Below, in pieces: positions 1-21,559 of a DNA stretch of 21,559 nt; within the stretch, counting starts at the first letter, position 1; each line of letters starts with the position of its first letter. Source of the stretch: a virus; IMG/VR virus record IMGVR_UViG_3300033146_001452, positions 1-21,559 of that record. One strand, given 5' to 3'. The notes beneath the pieces were generated by a model. The model was given only the letters and a program-made list of their open reading frames with translations, made no database searches and was not told the DNA's origin. A program made the position numbers and the translations under genes.

Positions 1-821
1 TAATCATCTGTCCCATCGAAACTATAAGCGTGGTTATTAAATCCTAGATGGTCTGTAGTTAATGTAGCTCAACTTACTGTTCAGTTATTACCTCATATAA
101 TATCACTAGCATCTCAATCAAAGTCATACATAGCTACAGCACCTTTAAACAAAGCTGGGTAATTGTTTTGTCATAATCTACGTAGTCATTCTATATATAG
201 AGCTTGTATCTCGTTAGGGGTTAAAGTTTTGTTGTAAAATCTTACCAATCATAACCATCAATCTACATAATCTTGGCTTGGCCTATACATCAAATGTAAT
301 CAATTAGTGTTGTTTGACTGTCCCCAAGCAGTAGTATCTGTATCTACTAATAAATTATTAACATATCATCTTGTTGTGCTTCAATCTGTGGTTATTGTTA
401 TATGGTATCGTGTGTCAGTAGCCCAAGAAGCTCATAGATTTATATATCAAGATGTAGAAGCATTTTGAAACTGAAAATACAATTTTGTGTCGGCATCCTC
501 TCGATATATTTGCCAATCTCAATTATTTATTCAAGCAGTATCTTTATAAACAAGCCTTTCATCGTCAGACGTAAATGCACTGTCTAATTTAAACCAAAAC
601 GATAAAGAGAAATTATCACTATGAAAATCAGCACTATCGCCTATATTTATATAACTACTACTTCCATTAAAACTTCCACACTCCTTAACAAAACCTCTTT
701 CTGCATCAACTCGTGTAACATTACTAGCTGTTCAATCATTTCATTCTCAACTAGTATCAGAAGCCGAGCCGTCAAGTAATCGCTCCCCTACTAAGTCTTT
801 TCTGTTTATTGAGTCTATCAT
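1..821 (-). CDS. LamG-domain tail fibre / receptor-binding protein, partial (C-terminus off window)
   Basis: About 273 codons are visible from ATG at 821; the 3' end runs past base 1. Two Laminin-G/concanavalin-like modules can be read. The first begins near residue 40 (motif CGSFNGSSSYINIGD, then FSLSFWFKLDS) and ends near residue 210 with LTPNEIQALY. A second begins about 25 residues later with AMYDFDGDASDIIGGNNG and ends at the window edge with YSFDGTDD. These are typical LamG signatures in phage fibres and bind glycans or other surface ligands. Several Gly of the second module (FDG, GGNNG, SGAT) are written TGA, which supports the Gly reading. The start lies one base after the TAA of the upstream ORF (823-825), so translation is probably coupled. 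Likely exposed at the virion tip for host attachment; the ligand cannot be told. Confidence 0.8.
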
Positions 822-822
822 A

Positions 823-1212
823 TTATAGTTCAATGTTAATTGTTAAATCACTACCTGCTGTTCAACTTCAAACCTGTGTAATCACTACATATAAAACATC
901 ATTTGCACTAACGCTTCCATTGTCTATAGTTGTCTTATCCACTGTGTATATTCAATTAGTAGCAGATTGTGATGTTGTTATTTCAAGTTCACTGTCACTT
1001 GTAAATATACTATCTGTAGTTGCTGTTCAGTTTTTTCTTACATCTATCTTTATTGATTGTCAAGTAGGTAATACTCATACAGATGCTTTAATCTTACTAA
1101 TAGTTCAGCTATCAGATACTGTATATCTTTGTATAGTTCCTGTATATAGTTCTCAAACCTCATCAGCCAGAATTATCATCAAAGTATTTCTTATTAACCA
1201 TATCTTCATCAT
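823..1212 (-). CDS. Fibre C-terminal ORF, probably reached by +1 frameshift from the upstream fibre gene
   Basis: As a free ORF it would start at tandem ATG codons (1212-1207) and give 129 aa ending SDLTINIEL. Its first 17 residues (MMKIWLIRN...) overlap the conserved end of the upstream fibre gene in another frame and do not look like a designed N-terminus. From EVGELYTGTIQRY onward it reads like a compact beta-rich fibre domain: ISKIKASVG, LPTGQSIKIDVRKNGT, LEITTSQSATNGIYTV. TGA is used for many Gly, including LPTGQ, KNGT and VGSGT. I see no ribosome-binding site before the ATG pair. Two readings are possible: a separate, translationally coupled gene, or the C-terminal domain of the 1109-3814 protein made by a +1 shift near 1175-1185. 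I favour the second; a one-base assembly error is a third option. Confidence 0.65.
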
Positions 1213-3814
1213 TAGCTGGAACAGCTGTAGATTTAATAGTTCCACTACCCATATCTAAATTATCATTATCTATCAATGGTTTAATTGTATCAGTTTCATC
1301 ATCTCTTCAGAAAGGAGAACTATCACTAGAACTAAATGCTGCTACATCTATTCCTCGTTTAGCTCACAACTTACTTGTTAAAGCAGCTCTTTCATCAGAT
1401 GTTATTGTGTCACTTAAAGCCAATATCTCTCACATCTCTCCAAGATAATCCATTCAAGATATATCACCTATTCCAACCATTAAATCAGCTGTTCCATTTG
1501 GAATATCGTTTGTAACATAAGATGACGAACCTAGTAAATAACCATTTTTATAAACATATAATCTATTTCAAGGTACTCGACTTATTTCTAATACCTCCCA
1601 TTCTGTATAGTTTGATGAATAATTTAATGTAGCTTCATTTCCACTACCGTCAAGCTTTTCATAGATTGTTGATGAATTTGTTAAAAATTTCCATTCTCTA
1701 TTTGGTGTATTATCTGCATATTTACTAATAATTGCATCTCAACCATATGTTGGTTTAATTACTGCTATAATAGTTAATCATCTATTTGCTGTATTACTAT
1801 GTATGTCTCTATCTCCAAAATTTATTGTTGAGTTGTTTTCATTCCATAATGCAGTATTTAATCAGTTTTGTGTAGATAATCAATATTTTACATTACCAGC
1901 TAATGTAGATGTTCAGTTCCAAGAGTTAATACTATCAACAACATTTGTTATGCTATTTCAACTTGTAGTAATACTACTAGCATCAGAGAAATCTATATGA
2001 AAACTCTTATTAGATATATCATCTAAAGATATATTAAAACTTGTATTATGTGATGCAACAACTATTGCTTCATCTCCTACCTTTTCTATTATAAGATACC
2101 CTCAAGGATATATAGCTCTAGCTTGTGTAGAACCTCATACTGTTCAACCATTAGGGTCAAATATTAAGTTATATTCTGTACCAGAGTTTATAAATGTTCT
2201 AGAATTCCCTGTTTCAGCGTTACCAAATACTGTAGGATTTACAGTAGCTGTTATATCTCCTGTACTTGGTGTGGCATTCATTACTCAAAACTCCCAAGAC
2301 TCTGTCTCGTCATAATCAGCAGTTACTTCTATAAGTTTCTTAATAATATTACCACTCATTCGTAGATTACCATTACTTGGACTATTTACATAAGAATATG
2401 TTCCATCTCAGGTTACTCAATCTTCTGCAACTATATCGTCAAAATGAGAATAAAGTGTTTCTGTTGTGTTTATATTACTAAACTTATTCTCTGTAAATCA
2501 AGTTACAGATACTCTATTTCAAGTAGTATGGACTACTCATCATCCTGTTCAATTAAGATGTAAGAAGTTTGCTCACATACTTCAAATTCAGCTAGGTGTT
2601 GTTAATACAACTTTATTATTCATAAGCTCTATCTCATTACTATTCTCACTCATATAGAAACCCACTCATCAAGCATAAGAAGCAGATGTTGCTTCTATAG
2701 TCATATCAATATTTTTAATTATATTGTGTCAGCTACTAATATCATATGCAAACCTTAGCCTGTCAGTAGATGCAGTATCATCTAAACTCATAGTTCAGAA
2801 ACTTTGCATTAAATTAAATGACGATGTTCAGCTAGTATATATAAAATTATTAGGTCATCAGCTTGTTCCTGTTCAATCAAAATCAAATCTACATCAAAAG
2901 AAGTTATAACTTCCAGATTGTAAGTCTATCATCTTTTCAGCATATCAATCATTTATTTCATAATCGAAAGTGATAGAGTTGAATGTAGTCATCATACCAT
3001 TACCTACAAAAAGTTTAGATGGATTAGAACCTGTAGACTCTGATTTAAGTTTTAAGTTTTTAATAAATGCCATACTCATCATAGTAGATGGTACTGTCAA
3101 ACAAGTACTTGTATCGCTTTGAATAACAACAGCACCCATAGTACCCATACCTACCAATGAAGTAGTTCATCCTGCTTTAGTAGTTACTTCTTCTTCATAA
3201 ACACCATCATATATCAGGATAGTATCTCAGTTTGTAGAAGCGTTAATAGCTGCTTGTATAGTATCGTAGTCTCAACCAGACTTAGCTACTATTATAGTGT
3301 TCCCATAATCTACTCAACCTCATCATCAAGTAACACTTACTATAGGATTAACTGGGTCTGTGCTATCTACATTAATACCTGTTCAAGCTACTACACTATC
3401 TACCTGTCATCATCAACCTCAACCATTGTCATCTACATATTTCTTAGTAGCTGGTTCGTAATCAGCATCAGGCGTGAATGGTGTTGTGTTATCTAACTCT
3501 AATACATTAGCTTTGGTTGCTAGACTAGATAAGTCTTGATCCCCAGTGTTTGTACCACTAGTATTTCATATAACTACTTTTTGAGCATCAGTTACATAAT
3601 TTTTATCAGTATCTTCTGATATATTGCCAGTAGTTAATGTTACTGCTCATGTTTCACTATTTACGCTAGTTACTCAAGCATCTACTGCTGTTTTAAGATC
3701 TGATATAGTTATCTTCTCTGCATCTCAACTAGCTGTAGCACTAATTGGTAATACATCACTATCAGCTGTAGAACTATGTGCATCTAGCTCATAAATAAGT
3801 TTTTCTGTTGCCAT
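1109..3814 (-). CDS. Large tail fibre / tailspike: beta-helix plus LamG-like domain
   Basis: 901 aa from ATG at 3814 (MATEKLIYELD) to TAG at 1109-1111, checked open codon by codon with TGA as Gly. The N-terminus has the short repeats usual in tail fibres (VTSVNSETGAVTLTTG; IGNTSGTNTGDQDLSSL; ATKKYVDDN then a poly-Gly linker). Residues about 165-300 look like a pectin-lyase-type right-handed beta-helix (TIIVAKSGGDYDTIQAAIN, GDTILIYDGVYEEEV). Residues about 600-820 look like a LamG/concanavalin domain ending in SDERAALTSKLGAKRGI. The end has the linker motif VPANDEDMVNKKYFDDN followed by GGG, where the frame then gives only a short tail before TAG. Role: host surface recognition, perhaps polysaccharide binding or cleavage; I cannot identify catalytic residues. 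It probably continues into the overlapping 823-1212 ORF by a frameshift. Confidence 0.82.
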
Positions 3815-20681: not shown

Positions 20682-21559
20682 TTATCACTTTATAACAGCT
20701 AAAGGCGTAAGTTCTGTCTTTATTTTAACTAAATCTTTTTGTTCTTCCATTACAGTATCTATATTTTTATATGCACTAGGTGCTTCATCTAAATCTTTTA
20801 TCTCTTTAATAGAGTGTATTATTCATTGTTTATTTAATAAGTCCTGCTCCTCTTTTAAATTAAGACTTCTTTGTGCTTCTCTTCTTCACATATTTCTACC
20901 AGCTCAATGACTACAAGACATAAAACTTTCTTTATTGCCTAATCATTCTACAATATATGATTTTGTTCATTGGCTTCAAGGTATAATACCTATCTCTCAT
21001 TTTCTAGCACTAGTGGCTCATTTTCTATGCACCCACACATTTTTTCATCAATGACTTTCTAACCTAGCATAATTATGAGCTATATTGATAAATTCTAACT
21101 CCTCTGTTTTTATAAATTTATTAAAACTATCTAAACATCTATTCATCATAAGTTTTCTATTTGCCAGTGCATAATCTATACAATAATTCATTTCTCTTAT
21201 ATATGCTTTTCACTCTTCACTATCAACTGGTAAAAAAGCTAAGTCCTTTATTACTTGTGAGTACCACTTATTATTTAACTCAATAGCTCTTTTATTATAA
21301 TAGTCTGCAACCTGTTTTCATAAATTTCTACTTCAGCTATGTATCATTATCCAAATATGTCCATCATCTCATTTTTGTATTTCTATAAAGTGATTTCATC
21401 ATCATAACGTTCCTAACTGATATAATGAATTATCATATTCTCTACAACAAACCTCATCTAATTGGTGGTTTTTTAAAGTAAGTTCTGAATGTTGCATTTC
21501 ACTATGTTTATTAAATCACACTGGAATAACACCTTTAATTTCTTCAATTATTTTCAAAA
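20682..21559 (-). CDS. rtcB: RNA ligase RtcB, 3' part (N-terminus off window)
   Basis: About 291 residues are visible, open to the window edge, ending VIKG with the final Gly written TGA just before TAA. RtcB joins 2',3'-cyclic phosphate (or 3'-phosphate) ends to 5'-OH RNA ends using GTP and Mn2+. Visible signature blocks in order: LYQLGTLGGGNHFIE (Asn-His metal ligands; the GGG is three TGA codons, 21396-21404), IMIHSGSRNLGKQVADYYN (metal His), GVHRKGATSARKGE (His), GIIPGSQGTKSYIVEGLG, and CSHGAGRNMGRREA, whose His is the GMP-accepting residue in characterised RtcB. All four His/Asn sets are intact, so the enzyme looks active; the catalytic Cys block lies upstream of the window. About 19 of 25 visible Gly codons are TGA. 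In a phage it may repair tRNAs cut by host nucleases or splice/heal viral RNA. Confidence 0.95.

What the first reader, a model, noticed from the sequence alone, without database searches (positions are those of the whole stretch)
1109..1212. Likely +1 frameshift at tandem UGA codons joining two fibre ORFs
The fibre ORF 1109-3814 carries the conserved linker VNKKYFDDN then Gly-Gly-Gly and collapses into a short tail. In the +1 frame the sequence continues immediately as a good fibre domain (EVGELYTGTIQRY). The switch fits near TGA TGA at about 1175-1185. Slow decoding of UGA is the trigger of the classical prfB +1 frameshift, so a programmed event in this code is conceivable. A one-base sequencing error would look the same.
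Basis: inference. Interest (0 to 1): 0.6.

Follow-up and report, generated by a model that had tools for sequence, protein, structure and literature searches.

The report
Tail-fibre gene split by frame slip
In a virus of bacteria that read the stop codon UGA as glycine, the tip domain of a tail fibre is written one base out of step with the rest of the fibre, and this looks like an ordinary break in one gene rather than a built-in ribosome trick.

Summary
On the minus strand, read with TGA=Gly, fibre ORF A (1109-3814) ends in the linker VNKKYFDDN-S-GGGG and then a 15-residue tail with poor codon usage. The +1 frame (823-1155) encodes a jelly-roll domain. This domain sits at the C-terminus of phage tail fibres and of long Gracilibacteria-class proteins, and it is followed here, as in other phages, by a closely abutting gene (here LamG). 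So the two ORFs very probably belong to one fibre.

The tandem-UGA/prfB idea does not hold. UGA is the main Gly codon here (343 of 549), and 22 other tandem-UGA runs carry no frame change. prfB shifting needs UGA as a stop, and no CUU-UGA, shifty-stop, SD-like or RNA element is in place.

The nearest comparable locus, code-25 phage L215, has the same shaft, linker (KKYVDDN-A-GGGGG), a C-terminal domain weakly matching the same family and a LamG gene, all in one frame. None of 29 relative rows or 16 cellular matches is split. The best reading is one fibre gene broken at the linker/domain boundary by a small indel, either an assembly error or a real mutation. A programmed +1 shift, or separate translation from ATG 1179, is not excluded. 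Reads would decide.

The parts
1109..3814 (-). ORF A: tail fibre, 901 aa under code 25 (N-terminal fibre segments, two Gly-rich linkers, shaft-like repeat, C-terminal linker)
   Evidence: residues 70-138 are 73% identical to fibre L215 375-448
1157..1198 (-). linker VNKKYFDDN-S-GGGG in frame 0
   Evidence: same kind as KKYVDDN-A-GGGGG in L215 and KKYVDDNGGGGGG in ORF A itself; an off-frame run of four Gly occurs at 1 of 13,150 positions
1148..1184 (-). range in which the frame changes by +1; best-supported part 1171-1154
   Evidence: codon change-point scores and profile scores
1160..1165 (-). tandem TGA TGA (Gly-Gly in frame 0)
1109..1156 (-). frame-0 tail LRTIYRNYTKIYSIG and stop, poor codon usage
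823..1155 (-). ORF B: +1-frame C-terminal jelly-roll domain and stop (frame open up to 1254)
   Evidence: phrog_27064; AlphaFold pLDDT 87.6-88.2; fold matches
1177..1179 (-). ATG in the +1 frame, possible internal start of ORF B (MIILADE...)
3..821 (-). LamG (Laminin_G_3) gene, ATG one base after the ORF B stop; runs off the contig end
   Evidence: homologue next to fibre L215 (31.5% over 273 aa)
3407..3445 (-). first linker KKYVDDN-GGGGGG in ORF A, with triple TGA and no frame change

Best explanation
ORF A and ORF B are one tail-fibre gene: N-terminal part, shaft, Gly-rich linker KKYFDDN-S-GGGG and a C-terminal jelly-roll head domain, with a LamG gene directly behind it. In this contig the gene is broken at the linker/head boundary by a small indel that moves the reading frame by +1. 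The smallest such change is one base. The break is either an assembly or sequencing error or a real mutation in this phage lineage; I cannot tell which. If real, the fibre ends headless 15 residues after the linker, unless rare frameshifting rescues some heads. Shown: the frames, the domain, the break, and a one-frame counterpart in L215. Inferred: the cause, and the head's role as a receptor-binding trimer tip.
For: The +1 frame is coding (+29.6 bits over 111 codons) and encodes a domain that is C-terminal in phrog_27064. It lies at the C-terminus of one ORF in S-CRM01, Gordonia, Rhodobacteraceae and IMG/VR phages and near the C-terminal end of one ORF in 15 of 353 Gracilibacteria-class genomes, 16 matches. 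None of these 29 phage/viral rows (repeats of the same phage included) or 16 cellular matches is split. Code-25 phage L215 carries the same shaft segment (73% over 74 aa), KKYVDDN-A-GGGGG, a C-terminal domain weakly matching the same profiles (13.4 and 10.1 bits) and a LamG gene (31.5% over 273 aa), in one frame. In the window the next gene starts one base after the ORF B stop; in 10 of 29 relative rows the next ATG lies within -4 to +3 of the domain's stop. No shift-prone site or stimulator was found.
Against: No reads or second copy of this phage were available. The other 17 ORFs are intact, so the contig is not generally error-prone. The site is not a long homopolymer (only TTT at 1183 and 1157). 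Directly after the Gly run the domain lacks the first strand that relatives have, so the lesion may be larger than one base. The +1 frame upstream of the tandem TGA reads MIILADE, which resembles that strand and raises the profile score by up to 3 bits; this would put the change further upstream or favour a separate start.
Confidence: 0.72

Rival explanations
1. Programmed +1 ribosomal frameshift: most ribosomes end at 1109 and give a headless fibre, while some slip in the linker and add the jelly-roll head, as in SPP1 gp17.1* or lactococcal MTP-TpeX.
For: Phages do append C-terminal binding domains by +1 shifts. The second ORF overlaps the first in the +1 frame and ends directly before the next gene. 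GGC, the rarest Gly codon here (9 of 549), lies at 1168-1166 and could act as a slow codon.
Against: No CCC-stop, CUU-UGA or SD-like motif in the right frame. The only codons with matching re-pairing positions 1 and 2 are AAA 1189 and UUU 1183, upstream of the favoured range. No structure beyond shuffles, no Rfam element. The stop is about 45 bases downstream of the favoured change. The arrangement is not conserved in L215 or any other relative seen.
Confidence: 0.1
2. ORF B is translated on its own from ATG 1179 as a small jelly-roll protein, and ORF A ends at 1109.
For: The domain occurs as a separate 130-145 aa ORF in 21 of 29 relative rows, including L001 and Nocardia phage P3.1. ATG 1179 starts exactly at a plausible first strand (MIILADE; strand 2-11, first block pLDDT 91). 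The upstream 20 bases have 25% GC, as 15 of 17 real starts have at most 25%.
Against: Separate relatives carry their own N-terminal extension; ORF B would start at the first strand. The overlap of 71 bases exceeds the largest other overlap (13). It needs CTG, 5 of 489 Leu codons. 33% of 249 out-of-frame ATGs have as low an upstream GC. It leaves the fibre ending in a Gly linker plus a tail with poor codon usage.
Confidence: 0.13

Closest known systems
Fibre and LamG genes of code-25 phage contig IMGVR_UViG_3300028920_000353 (L215)
   Same: shaft segment, KKYVDDN-[AS]-Gly linker, C-terminal jelly-roll-like domain (weak profile match), LamG gene behind, TGA=Gly
   Different: one uninterrupted frame; domain only distantly similar; apart from fibre and LamG (and one weak chance-like hit) the window proteins queried had no match in the part of the contig held
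SCRM01_013 of Synechococcus phage S-CRM01 and its next gene
   Same: same C-terminal domain; next gene is Laminin_G_3 and overlaps by one base
   Different: collagen-like stalk, standard code, one frame
SPP1 gp17.1/gp17.1* and lactococcal 936 MTP-TpeX (+1 programmed frameshifts)
   Same: +1 frame C-terminal extension of a tail protein by a binding domain (passages of PMC6316719 and PMC4759559)
   Different: those slip at CCC next to a stop codon in the tail tube gene; here there is no such site and it is a fibre
prfB (RF2) +1 frameshift (recalled)
   Same: UGA near a +1 shift
   Different: UGA is sense here; CUU-UGA not in frame; no SD-like stimulator

Membership tests
Programmed +1 ribosomal frameshift in phage tail genes | second ORF overlaps the first in the +1 frame | tested here: met
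Programmed +1 ribosomal frameshift in phage tail genes | recognisable shift-prone site (such as CCC-UAA/UAG) | tested here: not met
   motif and re-pairing scan
Programmed +1 ribosomal frameshift in phage tail genes | stimulatory RNA structure or SD-like element | tested here: not met
   pseudoknots were not modelled
Programmed +1 ribosomal frameshift in phage tail genes | split conserved among relatives | tested here: not met
   0 of 29 relative rows and 0 of 16 cellular matches split; L215 in one frame; no close relative of this phage was found
Programmed +1 ribosomal frameshift in phage tail genes | both short and fused products made | not testable with these tools
   needs proteomics
prfB-type autoregulatory frameshift | UGA acts as stop behind CUU, with SD-like sequence | tested here: not met
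C-terminal jelly-roll domain of phage fibres (phrog_27064) | profile match at C-terminal position | tested here: met
C-terminal jelly-roll domain of phage fibres (phrog_27064) | TNF/C1q/CBM6-like jelly-roll fold | tested here: met
   4-1BBL Z 8.9 (rmsd 3.0, 106 aligned) and phage 7-7-1 tail fibre Z 8.3 (rmsd 2.5, 95 aligned), a middling level
C-terminal jelly-roll domain of phage fibres (phrog_27064) | trimer that binds a receptor | not tested
   inferred from fold and position
Genetic code 25 phage | TGA read as Gly | tested here: met
   70 of 116 residues Gly, 0 Trp; the 18 ORFs treated as genes are open under TGA=Gly and broken by TGA under table 11

The most novel reading that the evidence does not exclude
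A real programmed +1 shift in a phage that reads UGA as glycine sets the ratio of fibres with and without a jelly-roll head. It would use a slow rare GGC codon or an unknown site inside a UGA-rich glycine linker, where the usual stop-codon triggers cannot work.
Probability: 0.1. Interest if true: 0.6.

Novelty: new member of a known kind. Interest (0 to 1): 0.2.

Why it matters
It adds a recoded phage to those whose fibre ends in a TNF/C1q-like jelly-roll head followed by a LamG gene, and it shows that tandem UGA by itself is not a shift signal in this code-25 phage. If the split were programmed, it would be a +1 frameshift without stop-codon pausing in a recoded virus and would make recoding there testable. 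As the evidence stands, it is mainly a caution about calling recoding from a single metagenome contig.

Tried and rejected
Close relatives by single-protein scans of viral contigs: the domain gave one distant locus; the fibre C-terminus, LamG and terminase gave none. Code-25 relatives found through the terminase: 0 of 8 records and 0 of 40 match ORF A. For the domain, one search gave 1 of 8 (L001's own record) and one search gave 2 of 40 (L114's own record, and G018). I dropped the G018 match as weak (35% over 64 residues) after reading its ORF. Profile search of 20 of these records: 0. No PDB chain matches the domain profile by sequence below E 0.1.

Tandem UGA as trigger: rejected. Shift exactly at ATG 1179/UUU 1183: disfavoured by codon usage (20.1 bits against 27.7 after UCU 1169 and 26.7 after GGU 1157), though the profile prefers it by 1-3 bits. 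AlphaFold with and without the MIILADE stretch (pLDDT 88.2 and 87.6, pTM 0.81 and 0.79) does not discriminate. In one search the LamG ORF was read one base out of frame; counts were redone.

Literature: search listings. I read passages only of PMC6316719, PMC5009743, PMC10746230, PMC4759559 and PMC8021871. In PMC10746230 (code-25 phages) the term 'frameshift' occurs 0 times in the main text.

Full report
What is there. The window is a whole IMG/VR virus record of 21,559 bases. All 18 long ORFs that I treat as genes lie on the minus strand and are open under code 25. TGA is Gly: at 26 TGA positions in the terminase, 70 of 116 residues in five standard-code relatives are Gly, none Trp, and nine columns are all Gly. 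ORF A (1109-3814) is a 901-aa fibre. Its end reads VNKKYFDDN-S-GGGG and then LRTIYRNYTKIYSIG and a UAG. The +1 frame is open from 1254 to the stop at 823-825. The tandem TGA is at 1165-1160.

ORF B is coding and is a known kind of domain. Codon usage gives +29.6 bits for 111 codons in the +1 frame against -125.9 and -78.3 in the others. It matches phrog_27064 at profile positions 161-246 of 249 (E 1.2e-6). AlphaFold gives pLDDT 88.2, all strand. The fold resembles TNF-like ligands, CBM6 modules and the tail fibre of Agrobacterium phage 7-7-1 (Z 8.9, 8.2, 8.3; these Z values are middling) and many predicted phage tail and collagen-like proteins.

Where the domain sits elsewhere. In 29 relative rows from phages and IMG/VR (S-CRM01_013 counted twice, L090 and L117, and some IMG/VR rows near-identical) the domain is in one open frame. 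In 8 rows it is the C-terminus of a longer protein and in 21 it is a 130-145 aa ORF of its own. In 10 of the 29 rows the ATG of the next gene lies between -4 and +3 of the stop; in the window it is one base after it. S-CRM01 has a Laminin_G_3 gene there, as the window has. Of 353 genomes of the class that the Gracilibacteria genome G010 belongs to, 15 carry the domain (16 matches), each near the C-terminal end of a single ORF, with no stop inside.

The closest comparison. A DNA-pattern scan for the linker gave 9 stretches; 3 of them (L215, L217, L223) are long code-25 fibre-like frames, the other 6 are short frames. L215 shares a shaft segment with ORF A (73% over 74 aa), reads KKYVDDN-A-GGGGG straight into a C-terminal domain, and is followed ten bases later by a LamG gene related to the window's (31.5% over 273 aa, E 4e-22). 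Its C-terminal domain matches the jelly-roll profiles weakly (13.4 and 10.1 bits in a three-sequence search), so its homology is likely but not proven. Everything is in one frame. L217 and L223 have the linker but no convincing match to the domain.

Where the frame changes. Codon change-point scores, two best: after UCU 1169 (27.7) and after GGU 1157 (26.7); after the two UGA codons 25.4 and 25.5; after UUU 1181 20.1. Profile scores differ little: 66.8 after UUU, 65.7 after UCU, 63.9 and 63.6 after the two UGAs, 63.8 after GGU. A run of four Gly codons occurs off-frame at 1 of 13,150 positions, and in frame at 5 of 6,593, all five in ORF A's other linkers. Together with the L215 linker this makes frame 0 most likely genuine through the Gly run, with the change at or just after it. 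Against this, MIILADE in the +1 frame (1179-1159) looks like the first strand of the domain. Its first residues follow in part from the DDN codons: in-frame Asp-Asp reads Met-Ile, Met-Met or Met-Thr in +1 at the five other such sites. If the change is after the Gly run, the head lacks that strand, which could mean that the lesion is larger than one base (inference).

Is it programmed? UGA is the commonest Gly codon (343 of 549) and 22 other tandem or triple UGA runs, three of them triple runs outside ORF A and two inside it, carry no frame change. CUUUGA is present at 1184 but not in frame, and no CCC-stop or SD-like motif was found between 1249 and 1109. Predicted structures are no stronger than shuffles (z +0.94, +0.16, +0.62). 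Rfam gave one chance-level match below its cut-off. Known phage +1 shifts slip at CCC next to a stop (passages), or at a proline codon before a stop or pseudoknot in Listeria phage PSA (passage). GGC at 1168-1166 is the rarest Gly codon (9 of 549) and could be a slow codon, as the slow A-site codon in Ty3 (passage), but an indel could equally create it.

Is it a separate gene? ATG 1179 would start a 118-aa product. Its upstream GC (25%) fits real starts (15 of 17 at or below 25%) but also a third of 249 out-of-frame ATGs. The 71-base overlap is unusual (next largest 13), and separate relatives have an N-terminal extension that this one would lack.

Verdict. One fibre gene with a jelly-roll head, broken in this contig at the linker/head boundary, is the best reading (0.72). 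Separate translation (0.13) and programmed frameshifting (0.10) remain. Reads at 1100-1260 would settle most of it.

Noticed in passing
L095 1324-1758 (Nocardia phage P3.1): Unannotated small ORF with the jelly-roll domain between two annotated tail genes; its ATG follows the upstream stop by one base.
   Followed up: partly
L199-L214: 15 of 353 genomes of the class of Gracilibacteria genome G010 carry the domain near the C-terminal end of 265-1554 aa frames, without in-frame TGA in the match.
   Followed up: partly
window 20682-21557: RtcB-like RNA ligase gene (E 1.7e-87) cut by the contig end, in a phage contig without tRNA genes.
   Followed up: no
window, 17 gene starts: No Shine-Dalgarno-like motif before any of 17 starts; upstream 20 bases average 16.5% GC.
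   Followed up: no
window 1157-1180: 24 bases that look meaningful in two frames: DDNSGGGG in frame 0 and MIILADE in +1.
   Followed up: partly
L008-L011, L017, L019, L081: TGA-rich terminase relatives (44-67% identical) indicate a clade of code-25 phages; the one fibre region read (L089, record of L011) differs from the window's.
   Followed up: partly
window 3-821: Weak sub-threshold Pfam match to a neurotoxin receptor-binding fold beside the strong Laminin_G_3 match; read as shared concanavalin-like fold only.
   Followed up: no
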